NCBI RefSeq assembly: GCF_012939955.1
Contig: NZ_SPMY01000055.1
Coordinates: forward strand, 1 to 54,113
Direction of reading: 5' to 3'
DNA: 54,113 nt
Origin: Candidatus Accumulibacter phosphatis
Lineage (GTDB): Bacteria; Pseudomonadota; Gammaproteobacteria; Burkholderiales; Rhodocyclaceae
The stretch's first letter is position 1; every line of letters begins with the position of its first letter. The notes below the pieces were generated by a model. The model was not told where the DNA came from. It worked only from the letters and a program-made list of their open reading frames with translations, and made no database searches. Position numbers and translations under genes: made by a program. This document shows positions 23,939 to 53,947 of this stretch, in pieces.

Positions 23939-24598
23939 CTATTCTGCGCCCGCTTGCAAATGCCCGGTCTTCACCCAGATTACCGTTTCAACTTCCGTGT
24001 ACGGGCAGTGCGCGCTCAAGTGCGGGCTGCGCAACCAACTACCGGCAGGATAACGGCCATGTTCATCGATGAATTCGCCGCTGAGCACGAAGATCTCCTC
24101 GCCTCCCCAGTGCCGATGCGGCACGAAGCGTTCGCCGGCCGGCCATTTGACGAGCGCCACGTGCTCGACCTCGTACGAATGCAGCGGCATCACCTGCAGT
24201 CCGCCCTGGCCCGGTAGCCAGGCCGCGCTGACGGTGTCGATACGCACGCTGGCGGTATCTCCAGCGGCAAATTGGTGCAACTTCACGAACAGCACGCAAC
24301 CCTCCCCGCTAAAGGGTGCATGGCCACTGCCGGGTGGATTGCGAAGATAGCTTCCGGGTCCGTAATCACCGTCTTCGTCCGAGAAAACGCCTTCGAGCAC
24401 GAGGATTTCTTCGCCGCCGGGATGCAGATGGTGAGCGAAGCGAGCGCCGGCGTCGTAGCGAACGATGCTCGTCGCGTGCCCACGCTCGGCATCCTCGCGG
24501 GCCAGGGGTTTGCGCCACACGCCGGGCATCGGGGTGACTTGCCAGGGCGCGGTCGCGGTATCAATGTGCGCGGCTTCAGCGAAGTTCATGTTGAGCAT
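23939..24598 (-). CDS. ChrR-like double-cupin protein
   Basis: A 219-residue protein with two cupin repeats. The first has HLHPGGEEILVLEGVFSDED followed by GPGSYLRNPPGSGHAPF, the second HRHWGGEEIFVLSGEFIDEH followed by PAGSWLRSPHLSAHCPY. The His-x-His...Glu pattern indicates a metal site in each. This resembles the cupin domain of ChrR anti-sigma factors, but the N-terminal zinc domain that binds sigma is missing, so a stress-related or enzymatic role is possible and anti-sigma function is unlikely. The ATG at 24598 is used because the upstream extension is not family-like. It lies 36 bases after the 115-residue gene and is probably co-transcribed at the end of the eCIS train. Confidence 0.78.
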   Translation of the reverse strand: MLNMNFAEAAHIDTATAPWQVTPMPGVWRKPLAREDAERGHATSIVRYDAGARFAHHLHPGGEEILVLEGVFSDEDGDYGPGSYLRNPPGSGHAPFSGEGCVLFVKLHQFAAGDTASVRIDTVSAAWLPGQGGLQVMPLHSYEVEHVALVKWPAGERFVPHRHWGGEEIFVLSGEFIDEHGRYPAGSWLRSPHLSAHCPYTEVETVIWVKTGHLQAGAE

Positions 24599-24633
24599 GC
24601 GGGCGGTGTCCTGTGGAAACACTCGAGGATAGA

Positions 24634-24981
24634 TCAATCCGACGCCCGGGCAACGGCCTGATCGAGCCAGGCCAGCCACCTGTCCACCGCCGCCTGCCGC
24701 TTCTCCGCAGCGTCCCGCCAGTGATAATCGCCGTTGTCGTGCCACAGAAGCGCCCAGTCGCCGCCCCAGGTATCGGCAAGCACATGGCGGCTGACCCCTT
24801 CGAGCACCCGTTGGGCACGCAAACGCGCCAGTTCGTCCGGGGACATCAACAGCGGCAGCACTGCCCGGGCGGCGGGCAGGCCAAGGCGTACCAGCGCGCG
24901 CACTTCAGCGGTGAAATCCGCGTGCAAGGGCTCGGGGGAACGATGGATATGTTCCACGAGGGATGCGATTTCATCGCTCAC
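24634..24981 (-). CDS. Small helical protein coupled to a DUF4157 protein (115 residues)
   Basis: Not recognised at family level. It is helical and HEAT-repeat-like (VRALVRLGLPAARAVLPLLM; LARLRAQRVLEGVSRHVLAD) with a Trp/Asp-rich centre (DTWGGDWALLWHDNGDYHW) and a helical end. It starts with GTG overlapping the TGA of the DUF4157-OmpA gene, so it is translated together with it. That pairing allows a chaperone, adaptor or immunity role for the neighbour; none is proven. There is no signal peptide. Confidence 0.6.
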   Translation of the reverse strand: MSDEIASLVEHIHRSPEPLHADFTAEVRALVRLGLPAARAVLPLLMSPDELARLRAQRVLEGVSRHVLADTWGGDWALLWHDNGDYHWRDAAEKRQAAVDRWLAWLDQAVARASD

Positions 24982-26531
24982 GGCATCACGATGGGATGGT
25001 TGGAAACGGTGTGCGAGAAGCTGATCACCACGCGCCGATTGGCGCGCAAGCGTCCCGCGTCACGCGGCTGCGTGGCACCCGGCGCCGTGCCGTGCTCGGA
25101 GAAGATCTCGGTTTCGCCGAAGCCAAAGGAGAAGGTAATGCGCGTCGCATCGACGCCGGCCAGCAACAGCAGGTTTTCTGCGACATCGGCGCGGCGCTGC
25201 GAAAGATCGGCGTTGGCGGCTTCGCCACCACGCACGTCGGCATTGCCTTCAATGGCCACCGTGACATCGGGGTAACGATCCAGGTAATCCGGGATATCCG
25301 CCAGCTTGCTCTCCTCGCCGGCCATCGGCACATCCTGATTGGTATCGAAATAGAGCACGACAGGCTCGTGCACATAGTAACCGCGGAAACGCTCGAGGGC
25401 CTCGTCGAAGACTGCCGAGGCGCTGTCCTGCACGCTGGCGTATTCGTTCTGCACCGCGCCACTGCGAATCTGGAAGCCCCACGAGATGGCGCCATATATC
25501 GTCTGGTTGTCGGTGCCCTTGGCGACGGTCTCGAAATCCAGATCGCTGTCGAATGACAGGCTGGGGAAATCGAACAGGGAGGCCGCGCCGAAATCCGTTG
25601 GCGAGCGCAGCCAGCCGTACTGGTTGTCACCGCCGACGCCAAAATGTTCGATGTAGTTGGGCGAGCCGGCGTCGCCGCGCGGGGTCGCCGAGGGCAGGTT
25701 GTCGATCATCCAGCCGGCCGGGGCGCCGCCTGGCGTGCCGGGCGTCATCTGCTCCATGCGCCCGGCCTCGGTGCCCTGTACGCCGGTATTGCCGTCGACC
25801 ATGTTGCGCCAGTCCACCGGCGCACCTGAAGACGGCGTCGTCGTTCCCGAAACGTCGGTGGCGTTGACCGCCTGGACGAGGCCGATCTCCGCCGAGTAAG
25901 GCCCGTTCGGATCCGGCTGAAAGGCAATCGTTCCCGACAGACCGGGTGGTGCCGCCTGCGTCGCCATGCCGATCTCGAAAACACCGAGCGCCACCGGCAT
26001 GCTTTGCATCAGGTCACACTGCAGCGCGCGTGGCTCGCCCCCCTGCTGGGCGACGTGCGCCAGTTCGTGCGCCAGCAGACGATCGCCACCCGGCGTTCCT
26101 GGCGCATAGCGGCCGGGCGCGAAGAAAATATCCTTGCCGACGGTGACCGCGTTGGCACCCATCGAGGTCGCAATCCGCCCGGCGCTGGAGCCGGAATGGA
26201 TGCGCACATCCTGTGGTCCCGACCATTCGGAAGGCAGCCGCTCGCCCGCGCTGGCCTGCCGTGCCAGCCACCCACCGAGCCGATCCGCACCCGGACGCCT
26301 GCTGATCGGCGTTACGTCGGGAGCACTTCGGGCACCTCCCGCCAGCATGCGCGCACCAGCGCGCTCGGCATCGACTTCGGCGTGCTGGTCGCGCGCCGGC
26401 CGCATCGTCATCTTGCCGCGTGCGGTCAGGAATTTGGGTACGCCAGGCGTAGCGGTCGACGCTCCGCGAGAAGGAAACACGGCCTCGGCAGCCTCGCTTC
26501 GCGTCGAGGTTTTCTTGCTCTGATAAGTCAT
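24978..26531 (-). CDS. DUF4157 (eCIS core) protein with OmpA-like C-terminus
   Basis: A 517-residue protein. A variable N-terminus leads into the DUF4157 domain, where DVRIHSGSSAGRIATSMGAN and RLLAHELAHVAQQ carry an intact HExxH (His155, Glu156, His159), the zinc-protease-like signature of eCIS-associated proteins. The middle (about 165-390) is unrecognised. The C-terminus is OmpA-like: VVLYFDTNQDVP, AIEGNADVRGGEAANADLSQ, RRADVAENLLLLAGV, RLRANRRVVISF. A strong AAGGAGG precedes the ATG. It is the third DUF4157 gene of the train and the last one transcribed. A loaded cargo or a structural helper protein are both possible. Confidence 0.85.
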   Translation of the reverse strand: MTYQSKKTSTRSEAAEAVFPSRGASTATPGVPKFLTARGKMTMRPARDQHAEVDAERAGARMLAGGARSAPDVTPISRRPGADRLGGWLARQASAGERLPSEWSGPQDVRIHSGSSAGRIATSMGANAVTVGKDIFFAPGRYAPGTPGGDRLLAHELAHVAQQGGEPRALQCDLMQSMPVALGVFEIGMATQAAPPGLSGTIAFQPDPNGPYSAEIGLVQAVNATDVSGTTTPSSGAPVDWRNMVDGNTGVQGTEAGRMEQMTPGTPGGAPAGWMIDNLPSATPRGDAGSPNYIEHFGVGGDNQYGWLRSPTDFGAASLFDFPSLSFDSDLDFETVAKGTDNQTIYGAISWGFQIRSGAVQNEYASVQDSASAVFDEALERFRGYYVHEPVVLYFDTNQDVPMAGEESKLADIPDYLDRYPDVTVAIEGNADVRGGEAANADLSQRRADVAENLLLLAGVDATRITFSFGFGETEIFSEHGTAPGATQPRDAGRLRANRRVVISFSHTVSNHPIVMP

Positions 26532-26552
26532 CTTCGCCCTCCTTCCTTGCGC

Positions 26553-26793
26553 TCAGCGCGGGAACAGCCGTTCACCATTAGCGAAACTCAAAAAGCGTTG
26601 TGCACCGCCGGCGTCGTTCCAGGTAATGTGGATGGTCAGGTGCGGAAAACGGGTAGTCAGGTCCTGCAAGGGCCCCGCCATCGCCGGAGATCGCAAAAGG
26701 CCCGCCAGCCGCACCACGCCCGTGCAAGTGGAATCTCAGCGCGCCCGGCTTGGGCGAACGCACCGTTTCAACATGGGCTCGGCTCTCAGCCAC
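26553..26793 (-). CDS. Small protein of unknown function, frameshifted as sequenced (79 residues if repaired)
   Basis: The frame starts at a GTG (26791-26793) that lies just inside the end of the previous gene and reads MAESRAHVETVRSPKPGALR. It then loses coding character, while a second frame opens with a coding-like stretch RLAGLLRSPAMAGPLQDLTT and ends at FLSFANGERLFPR (stop 26553-26555). Removing one G from the GGG at 26719-26721 joins the two as FHLHGVVRLAG, giving 79 residues. No family is recognised. Its position between two DUF4157 genes suggests an eCIS accessory role. Confidence 0.5.
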
Positions 26794-27220
26794 TGAACAC
26801 GGGGCCAGCCAGGGCCATCAGCGTCGCGCGCACGCGTGCGAAGGCCGGCGGCGCAGCGCTGCGTTCGATGCTCACGGAATGATGCCGCTCGCCGAGTGTA
26901 GCGTCGATTTGATCACGGAAACCGTCGCGCCCCGGGGTCAAGATCTCGCCCGGTAACGCGAAGAAATCGCCCTCAAGCAGCGCGTCGACCAGCTGCCGCT
27001 GCTGCCGGAGGTCCAGGCGCCGCAGCGCTTTTTCGGGCCAGGGTGCGCTCCAGTGCTGGCCACGCGTGCAGTCACGCGTCTCGACGTAGGCGAACAGCTC
27101 ACCGGCGGGCGTCACCCGGATGCGCAGGTTGCCGCGACAACTGATCGCCTGAATGCGGCGGAACTCGATTTCCGGCTGCGCAGCTGTTGAAGGCTGCCCG
27201 GTGCTCAGCTGATGCTCCAC
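26786..27220 (-). CDS. Hypothetical protein between DUF4157 genes (144 residues)
   Basis: Unrecognised. The protein reads EIEFRRIQAISCRGNLRIRV, then TPAGELFAYVETRDCTRGQH, then LDLRQQRQLVDALLEGDFFA and GFRDQIDATLGERHHSVSIE. The pattern of two short beta hairpins, a helix ending in DFF, and a last helix resembles small lipoprotein-type domains such as DUF6438, but no signal peptide is present and this likeness is only a guess. The GTG start at 27218-27220 lies inside the end of the DUF4157-metzincin gene, so it is likely translated by coupling. It overlaps the next small gene at its stop (GTGGCTGA). Confidence 0.55.
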   Translation of the reverse strand: MEHQLSTGQPSTAAQPEIEFRRIQAISCRGNLRIRVTPAGELFAYVETRDCTRGQHWSAPWPEKALRRLDLRQQRQLVDALLEGDFFALPGEILTPGRDGFRDQIDATLGERHHSVSIERSAAPPAFARVRATLMALAGPVFSG

Positions 27221-29136
27221 TCGGATTGAGCGATGTCGGGGGCGGTCATGCGGCCGAGCGCCTCCCACAGGGTCACGTAATGACGCGGCAGCACGTCGAT
27301 GCCGTTCGACATCTGGCTCGCGGTATCGACGCCCCACACCGCCGGCCCAGGCACCCCGGCTGCAGTGACCAGCCCGGAATAGAGCGTCTGCTGGGCGCCA
27401 AGAACGCCGGTAGTGTTGTTCTGATACTCGTCAGGCAGGCCCAGCATGTGACCGAACTCGTGCTCGCCGACCGAATAGCGGTTGGCGGCATACGTCGTTT
27501 CGAAGGCATGATCCACCGCTAGGTCGGCCCGGCGGTTGGCGGCGTCGCCGGCAACCCCCACCGACCCGTGGCCAAGGACGCCAATCGGTTGCGTCACACC
27601 AAGGCCGGCAAGGAAGCTGCGCACCGCCACCGCACGCCTCTCGGAGAGGTCGACGTTATGCGTGGCGTCACCGTCGAGACTGGCGAAGCCGTCGACCTTG
27701 AGCGGGATCAACGGATCGGACGGATTCTTCTGCCTGGCCGCATCGGCGAAGGCGACAAGGGCCGGCCGCATCACCGGGCTGATGACATCCGAATCGTTGC
27801 CGAACAACACCGGTGAAGCCGCCGCCGCAGCGAGTGCGCTCTCCAGGCGCTGGCGCTCGGTGGTAGCCACGCTGCCGCTGTTGAAGTCGGGCTCCTCGCG
27901 TACGTCGGACTGGTAGAGGTCGGCGCTTGCCGGGCGCTCGGGATGCGCCACGTCGGGGTCGTTGGTGGCCGACTTGTAGTCGATCCCCGGCCCGGGGCTC
28001 TTGTGCACCGTCGTCACGTAGTGCGCTGCAGCGTCGTCGCTGACCTCGACCGGCGTCACCAGCGGGATCGCCCTGAAGTCCCAGCAGGGCTTGCTCGAGG
28101 TCAGCGTATGCTGGGCGCTCCAGCGCGCCGCGACGCGACCGATATAGGCGCTCTTGAAGTCCGTCTTTTCCGTATCGCTCCAGAAGAAGCGGCTGAGGTC
28201 TTCGCCGGCCATGGTGCGGCTGATCCGTTCAAGCATTCCCGGCGCGTTGTCGGCCGAAACGAAATTGAACTTCATCTTTACCGTCACCGGCATAAGGCCG
28301 ACCAGAGGAAAGTAGTCGGCGTCGAACATGCCGAAGGTGGTCGAGGGAATATAGCGTTCGAGGTGCATATGGCGCAGCGCGAAGGCGTCACGGCGGACGC
28401 CCTCTTCCGGCGTCAGGCAGCTGCCGAAAAGGCTGTCGAAGAGTGGCGTCGGCACCGTCGGAACACCTGCCGGCAGGGGCACACCGGCATCGGTCGGTGC
28501 GGCTGCCGCGGCAGCCGCAGCCGCCGCCGCGTCCGGCGTTGTACCGGCATCGGCGGTGACCCCGGCGTCAGGCACGCGGGAAACGGTGTTGCCCGTGCCG
28601 CCGCTGACCACATGGGCGAGTTCGTGCGCGATCAGCCGGCGCCCCGAATCGGACTCGGGTTCGTAGCGGCCGGGCGCAAACACGATGTCGTTGCCGAGGG
28701 TGAAGGCGCGCGCAGCCAGTGAGCGCGCCATGCTCCCTTCGCGCGATCCGCTGTGCACCCGCACCGCGCCGAGATCACGCCCGAACCGCGGCTCGAAGAA
28801 GTCGCGCGCGGACCTGTCGAGCGGGCGACCCGCGCCCAGCCCGGGCAGCGACGCCGACAGCGGCCCGGCCCCCTCGGCCGAACGCTGGATAGCGGAAGCG
28901 CAACGGGCGCAGGGTGCCTCCGGCGTACAGCCGTGGCATCCGTCGGGCCCCATCACCGCGGCGGCGATGCGCTCTGCCTGCCGCTCGCCGGCATCTTCCG
29001 GGCGGGAGACGCTCATTCCGCGCGCCGCAAGGAATCGCGGAGTGCCGGCAGCGCGTGTTGCAGTCGTGGGCCCGGATTTGGTATGCTCAGCTGAAGAAGC
29101 TGCCATGCTGCCTCGTGCCTGAGTCGTGAATGTCAT
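27205..29136 (-). CDS. DUF4157 protein with OmpA-like and metzincin-like modules
   Basis: A 643-residue protein. The N-terminus has a Cys cluster (CHGCTPEAPCARC, residues 67-79). The DUF4157 domain follows with DLGAVRVHSGSREGSMARSL and LIAHELAHVVSGG (His171, Glu172, His175), then an alanine-rich linker (about 195-215) and an unrecognised region. The C-terminal part is OmpA-like (VDGFASLDGDATHNVDLSER; RRADLAVDHAF) and runs into a second zinc motif, HEFGHMLGLPDEY, with His559, Glu560, His563, Gly566 and Asp569, the HExxHxxGxxD pattern of metzincins. SQMSNG (about residue 609) could be its Met-turn. GGAGGAC precedes the ATG at 29136. The two HExxH sites make it a strong candidate effector. Confidence 0.85.
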   Translation of the reverse strand: MTFTTQARGSMAASSAEHTKSGPTTATRAAGTPRFLAARGMSVSRPEDAGERQAERIAAAVMGPDGCHGCTPEAPCARCASAIQRSAEGAGPLSASLPGLGAGRPLDRSARDFFEPRFGRDLGAVRVHSGSREGSMARSLAARAFTLGNDIVFAPGRYEPESDSGRRLIAHELAHVVSGGTGNTVSRVPDAGVTADAGTTPDAAAAAAAAAAAPTDAGVPLPAGVPTVPTPLFDSLFGSCLTPEEGVRRDAFALRHMHLERYIPSTTFGMFDADYFPLVGLMPVTVKMKFNFVSADNAPGMLERISRTMAGEDLSRFFWSDTEKTDFKSAYIGRVAARWSAQHTLTSSKPCWDFRAIPLVTPVEVSDDAAAHYVTTVHKSPGPGIDYKSATNDPDVAHPERPASADLYQSDVREEPDFNSGSVATTERQRLESALAAAAASPVLFGNDSDVISPVMRPALVAFADAARQKNPSDPLIPLKVDGFASLDGDATHNVDLSERRAVAVRSFLAGLGVTQPIGVLGHGSVGVAGDAANRRADLAVDHAFETTYAANRYSVGEHEFGHMLGLPDEYQNNTTGVLGAQQTLYSGLVTAAGVPGPAVWGVDTASQMSNGIDVLPRHYVTLWEALGRMTAPDIAQSEWSIS

Positions 29137-29397
29137 CGTCTGTCCTCCGGGTTTCGCCTGCAGTAAGCTCCTGCAAGCCGACGAGCGCATCGATCTGCCC
29201 GCCGTACTCCAGCATAGCGCATGGTCGAAGGGTCGCGGTGCACCGACTCGCGGTCCAAGCCCAGCCATGTACCCGCCGTTCCGGCGGTCTCGACCGGCAG
29301 TGCCTGGCGTCGGACCGTTGTCTGCGAACGCTGGCCGCCAGCGACCAACAGGGGCCACGGCAGGCGATTTCGGCCGCATGCATCGATCCAGGTCAAT
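29137..29397. other. Longest gap inside the eCIS train
   Basis: 261 bases between two DUF4157 genes. Frames are open on the minus strand in all phases but none has a good start, coding pattern or recognisable motif. The gap could hold an internal promoter; no convincing -35/-10 pair was found. Confidence 0.35.
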
Positions 29398-32300
29398 TCA
29401 ATCGGCGGCGCCATCCACACAGCCGAACTCCCCCATCCCTTCACGCACGGCATGTTCGATATCGTCACCCCAGATGGAATCGACAAGGAGATAGCCGCCG
29501 AAACCAACGATAAAGCCAACCGCGTTACCGAGGAGTGGCACCTCCGAGCCAAGCACTGCGCCCGTAATCCCGGCTGCCAAGGCTCCGCCGCCCCCGGCGA
29601 CCGCTGTGCGGGCACCAGTGGCGTAGTAATCAATGTCGCTATAGTCGGCATCCAGGAAGGTTTCCTGGAAGGCCATCGACCCCAGCGAGATCACCGGCGC
29701 GGCAACGGCACCGACACCGGTCGACACAAAAAGGCGTCCCCCCAGGACACCGCTGCTGGCGAGCAACCCCGGCGTTTCACCGGCAACCAGGCCACGGCTG
29801 GCCCACTGCGACAAACCCAGCGCGGCACGACTTTCCACAAGTGCACCGCCGTAGCCGACCGGAATCGACGCCCCCACATTGAACATGCTGGTCGCCACCA
29901 TGCCACCATTCAAGTCGCCTTCGCCAGCATGCCACAACAGGCGACCCGACTCGGTAAGCGCCGCCAGCGCGCCACTCACCCGAGCGGCACGCGCAGCGCT
30001 TCCACCCGACACCGTCGACAGGGCATCTTCAGTCGCCATCCCGTTGGCAACCAGGCGGTGATACTCGACGACCTCAGGTGGAAAGAGGACATTGCGCTGC
30101 AGGCGAGAAACGGCCAGCGTGTTCAGACGCTGCAGGGCCATCACCGAAGCCAGGGTCGCGCGCATCGGCGCCACACGCGCACCGGCACGCTGCGCGACCT
30201 CGCCGAACACCGCCTGGATTCGCACCGTGGCATCGACATCGCCGGAAAGGATCAGCGCTTCGATCTGCGCCCAGTTCGAGATCGCCGCAGCACCCTCGCC
30301 CACAGGCGCGCCATGTACCAAGGCATCGACCACCGGCGCCAGACGGCCCGCCGACGCCCGCTCGCGCCACGCGGAGGCGAGCCCGGCGTCGACGCTGCCG
30401 GCCACCGCGCCGCGCAGGTCCCCTGACAGGGCACGGGCACGCAAGCGCGCGGTGAGCTGGGCGCGAATGGTTCGATAGGCCCGGCTGGAAGGTGACAGCG
30501 CGCGTACCTGATCCCATGACGAGTAGGTGCCGTCGCCGTGGCTTATCGGATCGGCACTCAACGAGGCCTCGATGATCGCGCGGCTGGCATCGGTCATCCG
30601 CGACGGCGACGCGCTGACCGCGCGCTCGATTCCAGCCGCAAAATCGGCGCGCGAGAGGTTTCCGCCGGCGACCATCGTCTCGACTGCGGCACGCACCGCC
30701 CCGGCATGCTCATCCGGTACCAGCAGCCGGGCGCTCGCCGCCGCATCCAGATCGGTGCCAAACTCGGGATAGACCGGGCCCAGCATGTCTGCCGCAGAAG
30801 TCAGCGTCGAGCCCTCGGCAGTCGGGCTCATCATGCGCATGAACTTGGTCAGATAGTGATCCGGATTGAGCGGGCCGCCCGTATCGACGCCGCTCATCGA
30901 GTGGGTGAGCGACTCGAGGTCGCCCGTGCGCAGATCGAGGGTATCGAAGGTCGGCGCATTGGCCTGCAGGCTGTTCAGGTCAACCACGGATGGATCAAGG
31001 ATGGTGGAAAGATCCGCACCCAGATGCAGCTCTTCGAACATCGTGCCGCGCCAATTGACGCCGGCACCCCGCATAGAGGCCGGATTCGCCGGATCTGTGC
31101 CCGGCGTCACTAACGGGCGAAGGAAGGCGTCGCGAATATAGAGATCGGTCGGGTTTGCGTAGAGGTCGGTCGGCAGAATCACTGCGGTCGACGCCCCCGA
31201 CAGCCGCCCGGGGACGCCGGGAAAACCCCTTGCACCCGGATCGGCAAAGCTGAAGTCTGGCCCCATGCCTGATTCCGGCCCTGCAGAGAACCCTGGCCAC
31301 AACGGTGCCGGCTCCGGAGTCGGTGGAGGGAGGCGAACGGTGAGCGCCTGCGAGAAGGGGTCGTGGCTGGCGTAGAACTCGTTCACGTCCACCTGCGGCA
31401 CGTTGTAGCGAGCCAAAAACCGGTCGAACTGGGCGGGCGTCAACACCTGCCCCTCGTGCTGGAAAGCCGGGCCCTCCTCACGCGCAACATCGGCCAGCAC
31501 CACCGCGAGCATTTCGGGCCCGATCGGCCGGATCTCGTAGAGCGTTGTCGGCACCGCCGTGATGCGCTCCTCGGCGAGCCAGGAGTGACCCATTCCGCCA
31601 CGCCGGCGACGTTCGCCGGCAAGGCGGCGCCGCAGGTGGTCGTGGTCGTAGGCAGGCTGTGAGTCCGGACGGCGATCACCAAGGTAGGCGACAACACGCT
31701 GCCAATGAGCAAGGAGTTCGGCGTTGCTCAGCGCACGCGCCGACACCGCGCAGGGATCGTAGGCGGCACCCGCTCCAGGCGGCATCAGCGAGGGACGGGC
31801 AGCGCTTGAACTGGTGGCCAGCGGCACCGCGACGCTTGCCGCATCGGCACTGGTCATTCCGGCAAACTCGTCCTCCGGGAGGCGCCTGAGCACGCCCCCA
31901 CTCCGCCCTCGCTGCTGTACCACGTGCGCCACCTCGTGGGCCATCAAGGCGAGGTCGTCAGTGCGCTCGCGGGCACCGAGCCAGATATCCCGACCACGGG
32001 TGAACGCGCGCGCACCGATGGCGCGAGCAGCGCGCGCCGGCGCTTTGCCCTGATGGACCCGGATTGCACCGAGATCGGTGCCGAGGGCTGCTTCGAGCTG
32101 ACCGCGCACCGCGCCGTGCAGGCCGGTGGCAGCACTGCCATTGCGTGCCGGCCGGGCATCGCCGTCGGTGCCGCGGCGGCCACCATCGCCATCGTCGGGC
32201 GGCTCTGCGCTCAGGTACTCGCGGCGTAGCGGCTGTTCATCGTTGCCGGGCTCCGCGCTCTCCTCGACGAGATCCTCTGCGCATTGCGGGCACGTCCGCC

Positions 32301-36175: not shown

Positions 36176-36180
36176 GAGCC

Positions 36181-41157: not shown

Positions 41158-41173
41158 GATCCACCTCCTTCAG

Positions 41174-43201: not shown

Positions 43202-43247
43202 GACTCATCCTCCAGAGCGCCGCTTGGCGCGCCATTGATCTTGCGGT

Positions 43248-44566: not shown

Positions 44567-44588
44567 CGCATCGGCTCCGCTTGGCGAC

Positions 44589-44900
44589 TCAGGGCTGACC
44601 CATGTAAGTCCACAAATAGGTCACCACACGGCCACCGCCAGCATCGAAGGACCGGCTGCCATCGAGGTTGAAGCTGGTCGCGAAGTCCACGCTGCGCGGT
44701 GCATTCAGCACGGCGGTGGGGTTTTCGGTATCGGCGACGATGACGATCACGTCGTCAGCAATCGAGCTGTTGCCGGAGTCGTCCACCACCACCAGACGGA
44801 AGGTGTGGCGCCCCAGCGGCAGCGCAGAATCGGCGGACAGGGTGACTTCGACGGTAGGGGTCTCGGTCTTGACCTCCTGGTTGATGATGAACTCGGCCAT
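44589..44900 (-). CDS. Small Ig/PKD-like protein
   Basis: A 103-residue protein. The first half (PTVEVTLSADSALPLGRHTF; RLVVVDDSGNSSIADDVIVI) is an Ig-like strand pattern, and the second half (PTAVLNAPRSVDFATSFNLD; GSRSFDAGGGRVVTYLWTYM) is PKD-like. AAGGAGCC precedes the ATG. Its C-terminus resembles the last 40 residues of the gpI-like protein encoded by the previous gene. There is no signal peptide, so it is likely part of the particle. Confidence 0.7.
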   Translation of the reverse strand: MAEFIINQEVKTETPTVEVTLSADSALPLGRHTFRLVVVDDSGNSSIADDVIVIVADTENPTAVLNAPRSVDFATSFNLDGSRSFDAGGGRVVTYLWTYMGQP

Positions 44901-44967
44901 TTTTGGCTCCTTGTGTCGGGTTGAGTTGCGGGTGGTTTTACCAGCGCTGTTGCCGCGCTGCTGGCAC

Positions 44968-47466: not shown

Positions 47467-49778
47467 CAGCACAGCTCGGGCACGACCGGCACAGCGACAG
47501 CGCTGTCGTCGGCGAAGGGGTTGGGCAGCGCCGAGAGGTCACCCGGCGCACCACCACTGCCACTGCCAGCCGGATTGTCCACAGCCACCACCGACAGCAG
47601 TTCGGGCAGCTGCCAGGCGGCGAGTTGCAGCGACTGGCTGCCGTCGGGCGTATTGCGCGTCAGCAGCCGCCATTCGCCCTTCCCGGCGATCTCGGCACGT
47701 TCGAAGAGGTTGATGCCGCCGACCTCGGCGATACCGGCGACCCGCGAGATTTCCACTTCCAGTTCACGCTCGCGCAGCGTGCGACCGAGCGGCCAGCCGG
47801 CGCCACCCGGCCCATGCGGCGGTAGCGGCCAGAGCAGCCGGCGCAAGGCCTCGCGCAGCTCGAAGAGCACGGCCTCGCGGCCGAAACCGTCGCGGATCGT
47901 CACGCCCACCGACACGCCGAGTGACACGTATTCACAGCCGATCACATACAGCTCGGTGGCCAGTGGTGTGCGCACCGACAGATGCGCATGCACGCGCTCG
48001 ATGAACGGCCGGTCGGGACGCGGATTGGGCGCCTTGCCGAAGGGCTGCGCCGGCAAGACCATCACGCTGACCACGCCGGGCACATCGAAGCGTCGCTCGC
48101 GTGGCTTGAAGCGCGGCAGCAGCTCGACGCGCGCCACGTCGGTGCCCGGCACCTCCTGCGCCAGGCGACGGTAATCGTCGGCCGTCACGGCGCGCTCGCG
48201 ATGGCGCAGCAGCGCGGGAATGCGCTGTTCGGCGCGGGCCAGGCTTTCGGCATCTTCACCGCCTGCGGTGGCGAGCGGCTGCAGCACCTTGATCGCCGGC
48301 ATCGTCCGCGCCGCACCGACCAGCCGGGCCGAGGAGATTTCGCTCAGGCTGGCCGCCGGCAGATTGCCGGCGCGGCCACCCCCGAAGCGTCCATAGGCCA
48401 GGCGGATGCGCATCTGCCGCTCCGGCACCCGGCCGCGTACGCCATCGCCGAAGCGCAGGCTGCCGGCCTCGGCATCGAGCTCGAAAACCGCCGCCTCACG
48501 CGCCACCAGCGCGTCGGCCGAGAGGGCGGCAAGATCTTCGACCCGCTGCCATGGCTGATAAGCACGGCCTGGCTCCTCGACCTGGATGCGCAGGGTGTCG
48601 GCGTCGACCGACGCGACCGGCAACTGGAAGACCTGGTCGGCAGCGCCGGTCGATACGCCGAGTACGCGGCCTTCGAGAGTGCTGCGCTGATCGACGGCGA
48701 CGGCGTTGATGCCGACCCAGGCCAGCTTGAGACTGCTGACGCCGCTTCCTGGCTTGGGCCGCAGACGCAGCCAGCCGATCAGCCGGGCGGCTTTTTCGGG
48801 ATCGTCGAGGCGCGGTGGATTGTCGCCAACGCCGGCGCGCGGATTCTCGCCGACATCGTTGGCGGCTGCCCAGATCAGCGATTCGTCGGGCATCGGCAGG
48901 CGCAGCACGCCCGGCCGCGTCAGCCCGGCGGTGCTGTCGTTGGCGTCGCCGGGGAAAGGCTCGATGGTCAGGTAGTCGGCATTTATGCCGTCGGCGCCGC
49001 GCGTCACCACTTCCCACAACACCGACACGCGCGCGCGCTGGCCGACTTCCTCGAACAGCGCCGGGGCGGCGATCGCCGGCACCACGCCGACCGACAACAT
49101 CGCCGTCGCGCCGCTGTCGCCGCCGCCGAGCGCCGTGCGTGCGGCGACATTCGTCGCTGCCTGCTGTTCGGGACGCTGCGCGGCGGGCGCCATCAGTGCC
49201 AGCCACAGCGCGCGATCTACGCTCAGCGCGAAGACGTCTACGCCCTCACCACTCGCCGCCTGACCGCCTTCGAAGAGCGGTGAAGCGAGATAGGCTTTGG
49301 CAGCACCGTCGATACGATGCACCTTCTGCAGACCGGCGATCACCGCCTCCATGCGCGCCGCATCGGCGTCGGCGAGCGGCTGCTTGTACCACGCCTCGGC
49401 AGCCACCGGCAGCAAGGTCGTTTCGGCCAGCGTTTCGAAGGGCAGCGGCGCCTTGATGCGCGCCCCCGCGGCGAGCGTCACGGCCGCCAGTTCGGTGGGC
49501 TGGGCAAACGCCAGACTGACGATGGCGGCAGCCGGCCGCGCCGGGCGCAGGCCCTGCCCGAGCAGCTTGAGGAAAACCAGCCGCTGGCGCTCGGGAATCA
49601 GGTTGACGCGATAGAGCAGTGCGTCGCCGAGCCAGGCGAACAGCTCCAGCAGAGTGCGACCGGGGTCGCCCAGGCGTGGGTTGGTCCATTCCGGCGTGTG
49701 CGCCGGGACGCGGGCCAGCAGATCTTCGAGCAGATCGTCGAAGCTGCGGTCATCGAGACGAGGCGGCAGGATCGGCAT
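47466..49778 (-). CDS. gpJ-like baseplate protein
   Basis: A 770-residue protein of the baseplate J / gp6 family (Afp11-like). The N-terminus has EWTNPRLGDPGRTLLELFAW followed by LGDALLYRVNLIPERQRLVF, the family signature. Later segments include RFGDGVRGRVP, YRRLAQEVPGTDVARVELLP, a VSVMVLP strand and the C-terminal LRREL-type helices LRRLLWPLPP. It forms the inner ring of the baseplate with gp25. The ATG overlaps the stop of gp25 (TAATG). Confidence 0.9.
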   Translation of the reverse strand: MPILPPRLDDRSFDDLLEDLLARVPAHTPEWTNPRLGDPGRTLLELFAWLGDALLYRVNLIPERQRLVFLKLLGQGLRPARPAAAIVSLAFAQPTELAAVTLAAGARIKAPLPFETLAETTLLPVAAEAWYKQPLADADAARMEAVIAGLQKVHRIDGAAKAYLASPLFEGGQAASGEGVDVFALSVDRALWLALMAPAAQRPEQQAATNVAARTALGGGDSGATAMLSVGVVPAIAAPALFEEVGQRARVSVLWEVVTRGADGINADYLTIEPFPGDANDSTAGLTRPGVLRLPMPDESLIWAAANDVGENPRAGVGDNPPRLDDPEKAARLIGWLRLRPKPGSGVSSLKLAWVGINAVAVDQRSTLEGRVLGVSTGAADQVFQLPVASVDADTLRIQVEEPGRAYQPWQRVEDLAALSADALVAREAAVFELDAEAGSLRFGDGVRGRVPERQMRIRLAYGRFGGGRAGNLPAASLSEISSARLVGAARTMPAIKVLQPLATAGGEDAESLARAEQRIPALLRHRERAVTADDYRRLAQEVPGTDVARVELLPRFKPRERRFDVPGVVSVMVLPAQPFGKAPNPRPDRPFIERVHAHLSVRTPLATELYVIGCEYVSLGVSVGVTIRDGFGREAVLFELREALRRLLWPLPPHGPGGAGWPLGRTLRERELEVEISRVAGIAEVGGINLFERAEIAGKGEWRLLTRNTPDGSQSLQLAAWQLPELLSVVAVDNPAGSGSGGAPGDLSALPNPFADDSAVAVPVVPELC

Positions 49779-50178
49779 TAGCCTTCCTCCAGTCGAACGG
49801 TCACGGCCAGCGCGCCGGGCGTGCCGGAGCGGGCCAAGCGATAGGCGATCTCCACCCGCAGGTCGGAGGGCTTGTCGGGGACTTCGAACACTTCTACCCG
49901 GTCGAGCAGGATGCGCCGTTCCCAGCGGCCGAGCGAATCCATCACCCAGTCACGAATCTGGCGCCGGGTAGCGAGGCTGTTGGGAGCGTGCAGCAGGCGG
50001 TCGAGTCCGGCGCGAACTCCGGGCGCATCAGTTGCTCACCGGGTCGGGTGCTGAGAATCACGCGGATGCCCTGGCGCACGCTGGCTTCGAGATCCGGCCA
50101 GTCGAGTCGGCCGTGCTCGTCCGGCAAGGCGAACAGCGGCCAGCCAATCAGGGGACGCGGCAGCTGGCTGGTGCTCAT
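49778..50178 (-). CDS. gp25-like baseplate wedge protein, frameshifted as sequenced
   Basis: The start MSTSQLPRPLIGWPLFALPD and EQLMRPEF match the gp25 / GPW family, which begins near DLEASVRQGIRVILSTRPGE. After MRPEF the frame is lost; one frame over it continues AGLDRLLHAPNSLATRRQIR and ends with LEEG at 49778-49780. Adding one base near 50009-50013 (GTTCG-CGCC to GTTCGGCGCC) restores a 133-residue protein of the expected size and the conserved MRPEFG-AGL step. The ATG overlaps the previous stop (ATGA), and the stop overlaps the start of the gpJ-like gene. A missing base in the consensus is the likely cause. Confidence 0.85.
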
Positions 50179-51974
50179 GACTCACCTCCGCTCTTCTTGG
50201 GGAAGGGGATGCAGATCTTGATGAACATCATCCAGCGGAAAAACAGATCGAACAGCGACAGGAAGATGTTCAGCACGATGAAGGCGCAGATGGTGATGAT
50301 CGGAATATTGAAGCTGCAGATCCAGCCGAGCTTGAGGCCATTGTCGGCCGGCTCCTTGCCGTCCATCAGGTCGAGCGGATCGCCGCCGAGCAGGTTCTGC
50401 ATCGACGCCGGAACGGTGAACGCGACGTTGGGCTTGAGCTTCTTGAGCATCTCCTTGTCGCTCGGGTCGGGCAAGGCAATCTGTAGCGGCGGCGCACCGC
50501 TGCCTTCGTACCAGGGGGCAATTACAAAAGCCGGGCTGTAGTCGCCCCACACCGTGCGGGCCGGGCAGACACCTTCGGGCTTGAGACGCACGAAGGCGCG
50601 CAGCACGTAGCGCGCACCCGGGTCGTCGAAGCGTCCGGCGACGCCGCTGACGGCCTCGAAACGCAGACGCAGGCAGGCCGACAGGGCGCGCAACAGGGCA
50701 TCGCCGGTAGTGGCGTCGAGCGCCGGCCAGCCCGCCGGGATGGTCGGCGCCGGCGAGATCGTCTCATCATTGAGCAGGATGCGGCTGGCCGCGGCGAGGA
50801 AATCGCCCGCCGGGCGGCTGCCGGCGATTGGCTTGCCGACGGCGTCGGCGAGCGGCAGGGCAATGCCGTTGAGCACCTCCATCAGCGAATCGGCTTCGGC
50901 GCTGTCGCCGAAAGCGTCGAACTCGACAGCCAGTTGGCGCAGCAGGAGCAGGAGGCGCTTCATCATGCTGCGCTCGGAGTCGCCCGGATTGCCGGCGATG
51001 CTCGCCAGGTCGGGCGTCAGAGCACGGCCCGGCCGCGGGAAGCTGTCGGCGAGGCCGCGCAGCGGGCCGACCAGATGCTCCTTGAAGTCGGCCGTCGTCG
51101 GACCGAACGCGGCCTCGTCGAACTCCGGCGCGCCGCCCTCGGCTTTCTCGCTGCTGGTGGTCGGGATCAGGCCGTAGAACAGCGTCGCAGCTGCCGCCTT
51201 GCAGACGTCGGGCGGAGCGACGAACATCGGCACCACCGATTCGTTGAGCAGCGCATCTTCCTGCGCCGCCAGCAGCGTGCTCACTTCGCGGTCGAGGACC
51301 GGCTGACCGGTCGTCGGCCGGCTCAGTCGGCGCAGTGCTTCGGGGTCGTGGCGATTGCCGCGTGCGGCGCCGTCGGCGGCCGCGGCGATGTTTGCCCAGC
51401 CTTTCAGGCTGTCGCCGGCGCGCATCCAGCCCTGCTTCACTTCATTCCCCTTGGCATCGCGCACCAGCCGACGGATGACCATGCCGGCTCCCTCCACCCG
51501 CTGCGGGTCGATACGTGGCTCGCCCGGTGTATCGCAACGCGCTTCCATCACCGCCAGGTTGAACTGGCGCTGAATCGGCTGGAAGAGCTTGAGCACTGGC
51601 GACCCTTCGGCGGCGCGACGAATGCCTTCGACCAGCTCCTGTTCACTCTTCTGCCCACTTTCCTGCTCGCTCTTGACCACCGGCGCAGCGGCCACCCGCC
51701 CGCCGGCGAGACCCAACTGGCGGCTGGCATCGCGCAGCTTGTTGAAAAGCTCGCGGCCCCTATTGCGTTTGCTGCGCGACCGGGTGTCGCTAGCGGTGGC
51801 CATGCGGGTCGGACGCGCCAGACTGTCGCGCAGAGCGATGCGCCCATTGGCATCGCGCAGACTGGCCAGCACGGCTTCGATGAAGTCGTCGTCGCTGCGC
51901 TGCAGGATCGCCGGCGCGCCGCCAACGGCAAGGTCGCGCGGGGCCGAGAGGATCACCTCGTGATGGCTCACCAT
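50175..51974 (-). CDS. eCIS protein with C-terminal membrane segment
   Basis: A 599-residue protein. The large soluble part includes KLFQPIQRQFNLAVMEARCD, VIRRLVRDAKGNEVKQGWMR, SGVAGRFDDPGARYVLRAFV and ARTVWGDYSPAFVIAPWYEG. The last 44 residues hold a long hydrophobic segment (NIPIITICAFIVLNIFLSLF and DLFFRWMMFIKICIP), enough for one or two helices, ending in a basic tail KKSGGES. I recall this C-terminal pattern in eCIS loci, where it may fix the baseplate to a membrane or line the spike exit. The ATG at 51974 or the adjacent GTG at 51971 (overlapping TGA) may be the start. It overlaps gp25 at its 3' end. Confidence 0.72.
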   Translation of the reverse strand: MVSHHEVILSAPRDLAVGGAPAILQRSDDDFIEAVLASLRDANGRIALRDSLARPTRMATASDTRSRSKRNRGRELFNKLRDASRQLGLAGGRVAAAPVVKSEQESGQKSEQELVEGIRRAAEGSPVLKLFQPIQRQFNLAVMEARCDTPGEPRIDPQRVEGAGMVIRRLVRDAKGNEVKQGWMRAGDSLKGWANIAAAADGAARGNRHDPEALRRLSRPTTGQPVLDREVSTLLAAQEDALLNESVVPMFVAPPDVCKAAAATLFYGLIPTTSSEKAEGGAPEFDEAAFGPTTADFKEHLVGPLRGLADSFPRPGRALTPDLASIAGNPGDSERSMMKRLLLLLRQLAVEFDAFGDSAEADSLMEVLNGIALPLADAVGKPIAGSRPAGDFLAAASRILLNDETISPAPTIPAGWPALDATTGDALLRALSACLRLRFEAVSGVAGRFDDPGARYVLRAFVRLKPEGVCPARTVWGDYSPAFVIAPWYEGSGAPPLQIALPDPSDKEMLKKLKPNVAFTVPASMQNLLGGDPLDLMDGKEPADNGLKLGWICSFNIPIITICAFIVLNIFLSLFDLFFRWMMFIKICIPFPKKSGGES

Positions 51975-52654
51975 ATGTTTCCCGCTCCCGGTGTGTAGCT
52001 GGTGGAGATAACCGACGTCGCCTGCAGGACCTCGCATTTGACGATGCCGGAAAACTTGGCCATGGCTGTATCGACGGTGACCATGCCGGCGCTGACCTTG
52101 ACCTGCGGTGCTTCGACCTTGACCTCGGCACTGGCGGTGATGCTGATCCGTGCCGCCTCCATGACGACCCGATTGCCGTTTGAGTCCTCGACGGTGACCT
52201 TGCCCGGTCCGTCGGAGAGTGTAAGCTTCTGCCCACCCGGCGTTTCGAGGACCAACTGTTCCTGACCCTGCTGATCATCCAGGGTGACGGTAACGCCGTT
52301 CTTCGAGCGAATTCGCTTGAAGCGATTGCCCTCGTCGCCGAGTTCGGCCGGTGCCGCGTTGGCACCGCTCCACAGCCCACCGACGACCAGTGGATAGCGT
52401 GGATCGCCTTGCAGGAAGACGACCAGCACCTCGTCATCGACATCGGGCATCAGGAAAGCGCCGCGATCGGCACCCGCAAAGGGGCACACCACGCGCGCCC
52501 ACAGCGGTGCGTCCTGACCCTCGAAGGCATCGAAGGCGAGCAGGCGAATCTGCACCCGATTGCGGCGTTCCGGGTCGGCGATGTCCACGACCCGTGCCAG
52601 CTGGGCGCCGTTGAGCCATCCGGCGGCGGGCTGAAAATGCGGCGCACGATCCAT
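51968..52654 (-). CDS. gp5/VgrG-like baseplate spike protein
   Basis: A 228-residue protein. The N-terminal OB-fold-like domain (RVVDIADPERRNRVQIRLLA; ARVVCPFAGADRGAFLMPDV; DDEVLVVFLQGDPRYPLVVG) matches phage baseplate assembly / gp5 proteins. The C-terminal part is a beta-repeat spike (FKRIRSKNGVTVTLDDQQGQ; LETPGGQKLTLSDG; VEDSNGNRVVMEAARISITA; KVEAPQVKVSAGMVTVDTAM). It should form the trimeric needle that pierces the target membrane. The start codon overlaps the stop of the gpD-like gene (TGATG). Confidence 0.88.
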   Translation of the reverse strand: MDRAPHFQPAAGWLNGAQLARVVDIADPERRNRVQIRLLAFDAFEGQDAPLWARVVCPFAGADRGAFLMPDVDDEVLVVFLQGDPRYPLVVGGLWSGANAAPAELGDEGNRFKRIRSKNGVTVTLDDQQGQEQLVLETPGGQKLTLSDGPGKVTVEDSNGNRVVMEAARISITASAEVKVEAPQVKVSAGMVTVDTAMAKFSGIVKCEVLQATSVISTSYTPGAGNIW

Positions 52655-53748
52655 CAGGAGGCCTCCCCGAGATACGCGCACTCGCCGACGAACTCGGTGC
52701 GATAGCCGGCGCGCAGGTCGTAGCGGTGACGCGCCTCGACGACGTAGTAGCTGTTGTCCCAGCGCGCGGAAAGGCCAGTGACCGCTACCGTGCTGCCAAC
52801 GCGGAGTTGGGCATTGCCCTCGGCAACGGCGTCGAGACGCACGAAGCGGCGCGCGCGTTGATCGAAGGCCGCCTCGGCCACTGCCTGCGCTTCGGCGTCG
52901 GTCGCCAGCGCCAGGTGACCAAGGTGTTCACTGCGCCGTTCGAACGCGCGGCCAAGCCAGTCGGCGCCACTCGTACCGCTGCCGGGCCCGCCGTGGCTGA
53001 GACTGCCGACCTCGGCGCTGACGGCGCTGCCGCCGACCGGATCCCAGCCCGCGGCGGTGATGCTGCTCACCTGTTGCGCGAGATCGGCCACCACCCGGGC
53101 GCGTGCCAGCTGGCCATGCAACTCGAGGCTGAGTTCACCCCGACGAACCTCGCCCCGCGGTGCCACCTGCAGTTCCTCGCCGACGATCTGCAGGTCGGCG
53201 TCGAAACGCCCAAGCAGCCGCCGCAGGAAAGCGAGATCGCTCTCGTTGAGTTGCGCCCAGGTAGCGATCGGCTCGGCCAAACCCTGCACCGAAGGACGCA
53301 GGCCGAGCTCGTTGGCGACGGCATTGACCACGTCGGCCGGCGACATGTCACTGTAGACCTTGCTGCGGCGCGCCATGCGGGCGCGACCCAGCGGATCTTC
53401 GGCAAGCACCACCAGTTCGGGCGGCGAGCCCTGCGCAAATTCGGCCTCGAAGCCGCTGACCACGCCACGGAAAAGCTCTCGGGCCTGCGTTTCGTCACCG
53501 GCATAGACTTCGATGGCCGTGCCAAGCGCAAGCCGAGAACCGTCTTCGAAGGCATATTCCGCACCGGCGTCGGTGGTACTCGCCCAGTTCGAGAAGCGCA
53601 GTTCGGCGGTACTCATACCCCCCTCGGATTCCTCGATGCGCATGCCGATGAGCAGTTCAGAAACGCGCAGGTCCTCCTGTCCGGCGAGGCGCAGCGTCGG
53701 CCGCGCACGATAGACCGCGGATTGACTGACGGAGGTTTCGGCAGGCAT
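52654..53748 (-). CDS. gpD/gp27-like baseplate hub protein
   Basis: A 364-residue protein of the phage late control D family. Segments ELRFSNWAST, GTAIEVYAGDE, LFRGVVSGFEAEF, ARMARRSKVYSDMSPADVVN and WAQLNESDLAFLRRLLGRFD, followed by ADLQIVGEELQVAP, are typical. It forms the hub that links the tail tube to the spike, and here hub and spike are separate genes, as in many eCIS loci. The ATG at 53748 is used because AGGAG is 9 bases before it. The gene is 12 bases after the DUF5908-like gene. Confidence 0.88.
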   Translation of the reverse strand: MPAETSVSQSAVYRARPTLRLAGQEDLRVSELLIGMRIEESEGGMSTAELRFSNWASTTDAGAEYAFEDGSRLALGTAIEVYAGDETQARELFRGVVSGFEAEFAQGSPPELVVLAEDPLGRARMARRSKVYSDMSPADVVNAVANELGLRPSVQGLAEPIATWAQLNESDLAFLRRLLGRFDADLQIVGEELQVAPRGEVRRGELSLELHGQLARARVVADLAQQVSSITAAGWDPVGGSAVSAEVGSLSHGGPGSGTSGADWLGRAFERRSEHLGHLALATDAEAQAVAEAAFDQRARRFVRLDAVAEGNAQLRVGSTVAVTGLSARWDNSYYVVEARHRYDLRAGYRTEFVGECAYLGEAS

Positions 53749-53760
53749 GGTCGCCAACTC

Positions 53761-53934
53761 CTAATCGGCGTGCCAGCGCTGGCGACGCTCGTTGCGCAGC
53801 GCGAGTTCGCGCAGCGTCGCTTCGACTGCCGCAGCCTCGCGTGCCGCATCGGGCGCCGGCGCGGCACTGGTCGACTGCGCGGCTTCATGATCCGGCCGGA
53901 CCTCGGCCTGCATCTCTTCGATCATGATCGGCAT
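53761..53934 (-). CDS. Small DUF5908-like eCIS protein
   Basis: A 57-residue protein beginning MPIMIEEMQAEVRPD, the short start pattern of the DUF5908 family that is encoded before the hub gene in eCIS loci. An Ala-rich linker is followed by a charged helix (VEATLRELALRNERRQRWHA). AAAGGAG precedes the ATG by 7 bases. No function is known for DUF5908; the call rests on size, start pattern and place. Confidence 0.7.
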   Translation of the reverse strand: MPIMIEEMQAEVRPDHEAAQSTSAAPAPDAAREAAAVEATLRELALRNERRQRWHAD

Positions 53935-53947
53935 GAATCGCTCCTTT

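What the first reader, a model, noticed from the sequence alone, without database searches (positions are those of the whole stretch)
23939..53934. Baseplate and accessory half of an extracellular contractile injection system in a PHB-making betaproteobacterium
A 30-kb minus-strand gene train contains hub, spike, gp25, gpJ-like and gpI-like baseplate genes, an AAA+ ATPase and three DUF4157 proteins, with most neighbours overlapping. There are no terminase, capsid or lysis genes (not a prophage) and no TssJKLM genes (not a type VI system). Sheath and tube genes are not in view and should lie to the right. If complete, this would be an injection system next to housekeeping genes with an unusual set of accessory proteins.
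Basis: partly seen in the sequence, partly recalled or inferred. Interest (0 to 1): 0.85.

Follow-up and report, generated by a model that had tools for sequence, protein, structure and literature searches.

The report
Injection machine with split PKD domains
This is half of a bacterial phage-tail-like injection machine (an eCIS) in an Accumulibacter-type bacterium, and three neighbouring baseplate genes each carry complementary halves of immunoglobulin-like domains, which suggests the machine's parts are held together by sharing domains.

Summary
Window 24.6-53.9 kb (minus strand) encodes the baseplate, AAA+ ATPase and three DUF4157/eCIS_core proteins of an extracellular contractile injection system. 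Cap, sheath, tube and adaptor genes are on contig C29 of the same assembly, and contiguous with the hub genes in Ca. Accumulibacter meliphilus and a one-contig relative. The window stops inside a dispersed repeat. As an eCIS it is a new member of a known kind; its gp25 frame is broken in this assembly.

The next gene (s1, 103 aa) is a C-half plus another N-half, and the next (s2, 111 aa) a C-half plus a Pro/basic tail. Of 58 assessable loci, 37 have all three, 20 none, 1 lacks only s2. Record titles span five phyla, none of the 58 is fused, and reading frames between the genes look random. A read-through chain is predicted to fold as two complete PKD-like domains across gene boundaries; in s1 alone most strands stay unpaired. 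I infer that I-s1-s2 is a non-covalent chain built by half-domain complementation. This is a prediction, untested at the bench.

The parts
53936..54113 (.). dispersed repeat (about 130-170 nt, inverted repeats inside) in which the contig ends; the same element sits at the end of the cap-sheath-tube half on C29 and between the two halves in L015
   Evidence: 52 matches in own genome, 40 of 382 candidates scored; junctions read
53761..53934 (-). 57-aa protein, conserved just upstream of the hub
   Evidence: no Pfam hit; present in L015 and, at 63% identity, in G410
52654..53748 (-). baseplate hub (Phage_GPD)
   Evidence: Pfam 1e-13
51968..52654 (-). spike (Phage_base_V, gpV OB domain)
   Evidence: Pfam 2.7e-23
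50175..51974 (-). 599-aa conserved protein of unknown role between spike and gp25
   Evidence: no Pfam, PHROG or NCBIfam hit; 79% in G410
49778..50178 (-). gp25 baseplate wedge gene with its frame broken (401 nt; pieces of 78 and 54 aa)
   Evidence: intact 133-aa copies in L015 and G410
47466..49778 (-). Baseplate_J wedge protein, 770 aa
   Evidence: Pfam 1e-11; solved relative 9gtp chain 1K, E 4.1e-34
44968..47466 (-). protein I: Tail_P2_I / CIS12-like wedge protein, 832 aa, whose C-terminus is the N-half of a PKD domain
   Evidence: Pfam Tail_P2_I at 545-604; PKD_4 positions 2-43 of 85 at residues 792-834 of the 834-aa ORF, under the Pfam cut-off; NCBIfam CIS12_fam 1.1e-29, below its cut-off
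44589..44900 (-). s1: 103-aa protein made of a PKD C-half followed by a PKD N-half
   Evidence: K319L-like PKD positions 55-84 at 25-55, PKD_4 positions 2-41 at 59-99 (both under the Pfam cut-offs); exactly one full-length copy in each of 37 loci; dN/dS median 0.18
44231..44566 (-). s2: 111-aa protein made of a PKD C-half and a Pro/basic tail
   Evidence: no Pfam hit alone; HMM match in 36 of 37 s1 loci and in L050; dN/dS of its first 54 aligned codons, median 0.32
43248..44234 (-). K: 328-aa CIS13-like baseplate/fibre-anchor candidate
   Evidence: NCBIfam CIS13_fam 1.7e-6, below cut-off; hhalign K-M 94%, K-N 93%
41174..43201 (-). M: 675-aa paralogue of K
   Evidence: CIS13_fam 1e-4, below cut-off; hhalign M-N probability 100, E 1.3e-53
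36181..41157 (-). N: 1658-aa paralogue of K and M at its N-terminus; fibre or large baseplate candidate
   Evidence: hhalign of the first 400 residues; no Pfam, PDB, PHROG or NCBIfam match
34538..36175 (-). 545-aa protein, no family match
   Evidence: relative in G410
32553..34541 (-). AAA+ ATPase (Afp15/Pvc15 position; that name is by family and place)
   Evidence: Pfam AAA 1.2e-25
29398..32556 (-). eCIS_core (DUF4157) protein 1, 1052 aa, HExxH
   Evidence: Pfam 1.4e-21
27205..29379 (-). eCIS_core (DUF4157) + OmpA protein 2, 724 aa; a second HExxH near its end with a weak Peptidase_M6 match under the cut-off
26786..27220 (-). 144-aa protein, weak Emfourin match under the cut-off
24978..26531 (-). 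eCIS_core (DUF4157) + OmpA protein 3, 517 aa
   Evidence: Pfam 1.2e-23 and 7.2e-11
24634..24981 (-). 115-aa reading frame after the third DUF4157 gene, role unknown
   Evidence: gene finder only, not scanned; 32% relative in G410

Best explanation
The window carries the baseplate and accessory half of a complete eCIS of the Tail_P2_I/CIS12-CIS13 type. The cap, sheath, tube and adaptor half is on another contig of the same assembly because a dispersed repeat lies between them. SHOWN: every structural class expected of an eCIS is encoded, the halves are contiguous in relatives, and wedge protein I, s1 and s2 carry complementary halves of two PKD (immunoglobulin-like) domains, kept as separate genes in five phyla by record title. 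INFERRED: the C-terminal half-PKD of I is completed by the N-terminal half of s1, and the C-terminal half of s1 by s2. The wedge then carries a non-covalent two-PKD arm ending in the Pro/basic tail of s2. In four relatives without the module (L029, L031, L072, L083) a similar Pro/basic tail sits directly on I. Splitting the arm would allow ordered assembly of the wedge first and the arm afterwards, and lets it come apart or be replaced without proteolysis. The rest works as in other eCIS: contraction drives the tube and spike into a target; DUF4157 proteins are probably loaded with the help of the AAA ATPase. Target and effect are not known.
For: eCIS. Split module: Pfam halves. 36 of 57 loci have I-half + s1 + s2, 20 none, 1 (L055) lacks s2; one of the 16 sequences dropped from that count, L050 (a Nitrospira MAG), also has all three: 37 / 20 / 1 of 58. 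On a tree of J (54 of the 57 loci) the label changes at least 7 times, 5 forced by starred branches. Frames look random: I-s1 in frame in 13 of 37, s1-s2 in 10 of 36; s1 has an AGGA/GGAG/GAGG site within 20 nt upstream in 34 of 37, s2 in 22 of 36. Purifying selection on s1 and s2. When stops are read as Gly, the best stretch of one PKD profile spans a gene junction in 3 of 6 chains scanned: L054 (12-84 of 84, above the cut-off), L075 (5-75) and L036 (8-66), the last two under the cut-off. AlphaFold of the L041 chain: pTM 0.73, 14 strands, 165 of 263 residues at pLDDT 90 or more, first junction (61-83) mostly under 50. s1 alone: 2 strands, pTM 0.63. Foldseek PDB matches at E <= 0.001: 362 for the chain, 0 for s1 alone. 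Intact tandem-PKD proteins match the s1 profile from about position 24-29 to 98-101, i.e. across the border of two domains (two read).
Against: No direct evidence of binding. The fold model is one chain made by reading stop codons as Gly, which puts the halves next to each other and may favour pairing; no multimer prediction was possible. Pfam scores of single halves are under the curated cut-offs, and in 3 of the 6 chains the best stretch did not span the junction. TM-scores of the chain to tandem Ig/FN3/PKD structures are low (0.22-0.31 by query in the top 50), which I put down to the angle between domains without testing it. L055 keeps I-half and s1 without s2, though its I frame also looks broken. 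Co-occurrence counts come from related sequences. A Pro/basic tail on I is seen in only 4 of 20 loci without the module (a Pro-rich one in a fifth).
Confidence: 0.7

Rival explanations
1. Polymer reading: s1, which has a C-half at one end and an N-half at the other, also joins to further s1 copies, so I starts, s1 elongates and s2 caps a fibre of variable length.
For: Geometry allows it: C-half + N-half in one short protein with no linker; exactly one s1 gene per locus (37 of 37), which a polymer needs no more than a fixed chain does.
Against: The two junctions carry different conserved residues across 36 loci: Arg after the conserved Trp in I (31 of 36) but Thr in s1 (35 of 36); in the partner half Arg in s1 (30 of 36) but Gln in s2 (26 of 36; Arg in 9). 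This favours two distinct pairings over one repeated pairing, weakly.
Confidence: 0.15
2. Circular permutation: s1 folds by itself as a permuted PKD domain and the halves on I and s2 are just short decorations.
For: s1 alone is predicted with good confidence (pLDDT 86.5).
Against: In that model only two strands of 3 or more residues are paired (30-36, 49-55), no Foldseek PDB match reaches E 0.001, and all three elements come and go together apart from L055.
Confidence: 0.1
3. The three genes are one PKD-bearing gene broken by frameshifts or joined by recoding.
For: In tandem-PKD surface proteins the same halves are in one chain.
Against: Break points are at the same place in five phyla by record title, s1 has a ribosome-binding-site-like stretch in 34 of 37 loci, the spacing runs from -4 to 369 nt with random-looking frame, and no fused locus was found in 58.
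Confidence: 0.03
4. The C29/C60 break is a real genome rearrangement at the repeat, so the eCIS of this strain is cut in two and perhaps dead, in line with the broken gp25 frame.
For: C29 runs on through the repeat into other genes; gp25 frame broken.
Against: The repeat has 52 listed matches and many contigs start or end in it. In 8 of 8 other genomes of the genus with full-length s1 the adaptor and s1 share a contig, 9.0-9.4 kb apart, and where both are on one contig the sequence that follows the repeat on C29 is about 650 kb (G418) or 2 Mb (G410) away from the eCIS. A misjoin by the assembler is simpler.
Confidence: 0.25

Closest known systems
Streptomyces-type CIS (NCBIfam CIS12/CIS13 families; PDB 9gtp, 8bky; that these entries and families are from Streptomyces is recalled, not from a call)
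   Same: J protein (E 4.1e-34 to 9gtp), sheath (1.5e-97 to 8bky/9gtp; 1.5e-99 to 9ezm) and Tail_P2_I/CIS12-like, CIS13-like proteins
   Different: CIS12/CIS13 matches are far below the curated cut-offs; three CIS13-like paralogues (K, M, N) here; s1 matched no eCIS chain in the PDB (best KIAA0319-like PKD, E 0.00035); s2 was not searched there
eCIS with Tail_P2_I adaptor and eBAP3/eBAP5 fibres (PMC12923769; listing, passages, and sections 7 and 8 read)
   Same: Tail_P2_I gene followed by fibre-like genes; the paper reports PKD modules in eCIS fibres and loop-mediated attachment of up to four fibres per baseplate
   Different: the words split and complementation do not occur in its main text; in the passages seen, PKD appears as attachment modules of fibres. 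Whether K, M or N carry an eBAP domain was not tested
HCF-1 Fn3 self-association module SAS1 (PMC6582346, one passage read; the original PNAS paper seen only as a reference)
   Same: a half Fn3 repeat on one chain and one and a half on the other interdigitate and hold two chains together without a covalent bond; it is also the top but not significant Foldseek hit of s1 alone (4go6, E 1.2)
   Different: made by proteolysis of one animal protein; here three separate genes and two junctions in a bacterial injection machine
Chaperone-usher pili (donor-strand exchange; recalled, not from a call)
   Same: subunits joined by completing each other's Ig-like fold, with starter, linker and end subunits
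   Different: there one strand is donated; here about half of each domain; no chaperone or usher family was hit in the cluster

Membership tests
eCIS | contractile sheath and gp19-type tube genes | tested here: met
   C29 in the same genome, contiguous with the hub genes in L015 and G410
eCIS | hub, spike, gp25, J baseplate genes | tested here: met
   gp25 frame broken in this assembly, intact in L015 and G410
eCIS | cap DUF4255/Pvc16_N, CIS_tube adaptor, AAA ATPase, DUF4157 | tested here: met
   Pvc16_N 2.9e-36, CIS_tube 9.5e-19; AAA, eCIS_core x3
eCIS | no capsid, terminase, integrase (not a prophage) | tested here: met
   no such Pfam family among the cluster proteins scanned; not tested beyond these
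eCIS | released particles that contract | not testable with these tools
   needs electron microscopy
type VI secretion system | TssJKLM membrane complex genes in the cluster | tested here: not met
   no match among cluster proteins scanned; genome-wide search not done
Streptomyces-type CIS (NCBIfam CIS12_fam, CIS13_fam equivalogs) | score above the curated cut-off | tested here: not met
   I 103.7 bits against 860; K 27.6 and M 21.6 against 370
PKD domain | one chain with the whole domain | tested here: not met
   I and s1 match halves only, s2 none alone; near-whole matches appear in 3 of 6 chains when the stops are read through
interdigitated half-domain association (HCF-1 SAS1 kind) | physical association of the half-domains | not testable with these tools
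   single-chain model only

The most novel reading that the evidence does not exclude
A bacterial injection machine builds its baseplate arm as a self-assembling chain of half immunoglobulin domains: I starts, s1 links and can repeat, s2 ends. This would be another way, beside donor-strand pili and sortase pili (both recalled), to make an Ig-like fibre from separate subunits, and one that needs no dedicated chaperone or enzyme.
Probability: 0.15. Interest if true: 0.85.

Novelty: new variant of a known kind. Interest (0 to 1): 0.58.

Why it matters
As an eCIS this is one more member of a widespread group. The split PKD module makes a precise, cheap prediction (three small pieces of protein should bind in order) about how contractile injection systems attach or extend their arms. 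If true, it is a new assembly principle for tail-like machines, seen in five phyla by record title, and a ready-made set of split-domain connectors. Searches of the held paper library for PKD domain + contractile injection (2 papers, both on phages), split + PKD + baseplate + contractile (5 papers, none on eCIS by title), and donor strand + contractile injection system (0) showed no description of it (listings only). Subscription papers are mostly not held.

Tried and rejected
Prophage and type VI readings were rejected for lack of capsid, terminase or TssJKLM matches among the cluster proteins scanned. The idea that s1/s2 are sequencing errors, and programmed frameshifting, were rejected because the same breaks occur in five phyla by record title, frames look random and selection is purifying. 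A fused relative was looked for and not found: the long-frame hits in the genome samples score as partial matches like those of tandem-PKD proteins; two of them (G733, G757) were read and are tandem-PKD proteins that look like surface proteins, the others were not read. PHROGs gave nothing useful for nine of the ten unknown or structural proteins sent, and tail sheath for the 524-aa one. PDB sequence searches with K and N gave no match. Paper searches for Accumulibacter with contractile injection system, eCIS or tailocin gave 0 papers. Coverage of the loci: 57 of 73 sequences (72 loci plus the window) were scored first; 16 were dropped because I was cut off, not called, or had no K gene after it. 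One of these (L050) was then found to have all three elements; the other 15 have no s1 or s2 match at E 0.001 on the strand searched, and most of them end before the place. The J tree used 54 rows; L035, L059 and L083 were left out for short or missing J. In the genus, G400 and G409 have the adaptor sequence but no s1 match; G400's contig ends about 4 kb after the adaptor and G409's match lies at a contig end, so neither tells. The genome samples scored at most 12 candidates per genome, so their counts are lower bounds.
Full report
1. Where the window lies. The window is bases 1-54113 of contig C60 (54,166 bp) of a 5.04-Mb, 149-contig assembly. The nearest named relative is Candidatus Accumulibacter meliphilus UW-LDO-IC (J protein 96% identical; 97% over the tree columns), so I call it Accumulibacter-type; the species was not determined. 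The left 24 kb hold housekeeping and storage genes (RNB ribonuclease, carboxyl transferase, PHB accumulation regulator, RmuC, DUF748; ten proteins scanned) and a tRNA-Leu.

2. The observation. The minus-strand train from about 24.6 to 53.9 kb encodes hub, spike, gp25, J, I, an AAA+ ATPase and three eCIS_core (DUF4157) proteins with HExxH motifs. gp25 spans 401 nt and is in two frames here; in L015 it is one 133-aa frame of 402 nt. This may be an assembly error or a real mutation; intact copies exist in relatives.

3. The missing half. Sheath and tube families ring on C29 and C65 of the same genome. C29 14983-22039 encodes Pvc16_N cap, a 268-aa protein, sheath, tube, second sheath-like protein (Pfam sheath C-domain just under its cut-off), second tube and CIS_tube adaptor, and is followed by the same repeat in which the window ends. 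In L015 the adaptor, one repeat copy and the 57-aa/hub genes are contiguous. In the one-contig genome G410 the cluster runs without a break for about 39 kb, with 14 nt between adaptor and 57-aa gene. In 8 of 8 other genus genomes with full-length s1, the adaptor is on the same contig 9.0-9.4 kb away. The sequence that follows the repeat on C29 is elsewhere in relatives where this could be placed: another contig, or 650 kb to 2 Mb away on the same one. A misjoin or break at the repeat is the simplest account.

4. The split PKD module. Protein I ends with PKD profile positions 2-43; s1 starts with positions 55-84 of a PKD and ends with positions 2-41 of the next; these half matches are under the Pfam cut-offs. 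The three-frame translation of L015 shows the same arrangement. Across the 72 loci plus the window, 57 could be scored: 36 have half-PKD on I, s1 and s2; 20 have none; L055 has the first two and lacks s2. Among the 16 dropped, L050 has all three. Thus 37 all, 20 none, 1 partial of 58. Record titles place carriers in Pseudomonadota, Acidobacteriota, Chloroflexota, Verrucomicrobiota and Nitrospirota; most are MAGs, so single phylum labels may be wrong. On the J tree (54 rows) the module needs at least 7 changes, 5 forced by well-supported branches, so it comes or goes as a unit several times. Each of the 37 scored loci with s1 has exactly one full-length copy. Full-length s1 is in 9 of 28 genus genomes, 1 of 398 sampled in the phylum (the window's own) and 3 of 399 in the order including the window's own (the G735 match covers positions 1-91). 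These are lower bounds, as at most 12 candidates per genome were scored. The module is real but uncommon.

5. Why it is not an artefact. The frame relation looks random (13 of 37 and 10 of 36 in frame), and s1 has an AGGA/GGAG/GAGG stretch within 20 nt upstream in 34 of 37 loci, s2 in 22 of 36. dN/dS among nine Accumulibacter-group loci is 0.18 (s1), 0.32 (s2, first 54 aligned codons) and 0.18 (I), medians of 36 pairs each. Intact tandem-PKD proteins match the s1 profile across the border between two domains (two of them read), which fixes the register of the halves.

6. Structure. s1 alone (25 sequences): pLDDT 86.5, pTM 0.63, two strands of three or more residues, no PDB match at E <= 0.001; the best are HCF-1 SAS1 (E 1.2) and complement C3/C4 chains, not significant. 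A chain made from L041 by reading the stops between I, s1 and s2 as Gly (19 rows): pLDDT 83.7, pTM 0.73, 14 strands in the order expected for two domains, each built from two gene products, with the first gene junction at pLDDT mostly under 50; 362 PDB matches at E <= 0.001, tandem FN3/Ig proteins and the grappling hook protein GhpA on top, with TM-scores of only 0.2-0.3 by query length. The model shows that the halves can make whole domains; adjacency in one chain could favour this.

7. Fixed chain or polymer. Residues next to the conserved Trp and in the partner half differ consistently between the two junctions in 36 loci. This speaks for I:s1 and s1:s2 as distinct pairs, weakly. The last 35 residues of s2 have at least 14% Pro in 31 of 36 and at least 20% Lys+Arg in 26 of 36 loci. 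A similar Pro/basic tail sits on I itself in L029, L031, L072 and L083, which lack the module (a Pro-rich, non-basic one in L044), but 15 of the 20 without the module have no such tail.

8. Other parts. K, M and N are paralogues (M-N probability 100; K-M 94; K-N 93), and K and M have weak CIS13_fam matches. In the literature Tail_P2_I loci seem to bind several fibres (PMC12923769, sections 7-8 read), so K, M and N are fibre or fibre-anchor candidates by position; this was not tested. The DUF4157 proteins, two with OmpA domains, are probable cargo or loading factors, following the hypothesis in PMC8213781 (passages).

9. Verdict. eCIS: about 0.97. Non-covalent I-s1-s2 chain: about 0.7. Polymer: about 0.15. 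The finding is a new variant of a known kind; the surprise is the split domains, not the eCIS.

Noticed in passing
window 53936-54113; also G000 C29 22031-22162 and many contig ends: A dispersed element of about 130-170 nt with inner inverted repeats has 52 listed matches in the genome (40 of 382 candidates scored); many contigs begin or end in it. No Rfam match at gathering threshold.
   Followed up: partly
L088 7664-20000 and L089 1 to about 11200 (G000 C65): A second, different eCIS in the same genome: WHD-AAA ATPase, Pvc16_N, sheath, two tubes, hub, spike, PAAR, gp25, then by eye a CIS13-like motif protein and a DUF4157-like protein.
   Followed up: partly
L087 5084-6079 (G000 C29 13083-14078): A sigma-54 activator gene lies just upstream of the cap-sheath-tube half; in G410 no relative of it was found by blastp next to the cap gene, so its link to eCIS control is open.
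   Followed up: no
window 27205-29379: The second DUF4157-OmpA protein has a second HExxH (HEFGH at residue 640) with a weak Peptidase_M6 match under the cut-off, so it may hold two metalloprotease-like sites.
   Followed up: no
window 49778-50178: gp25 is 1 nt shorter than in L015 and its frame is broken; error or mutation not settled.
   Followed up: partly
L055 15059-15499: In this Methylococcaceae MAG s1 runs on into a Pro-rich tail like that of s2 and no s2 gene was found after it; protein I also looks broken.
   Followed up: partly
L118 and L119 (G733, G757): Surface-type proteins with intact tandem PKD domains close to s1 in sequence (up to 92 bits); a possible source of the split halves.
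   Followed up: partly
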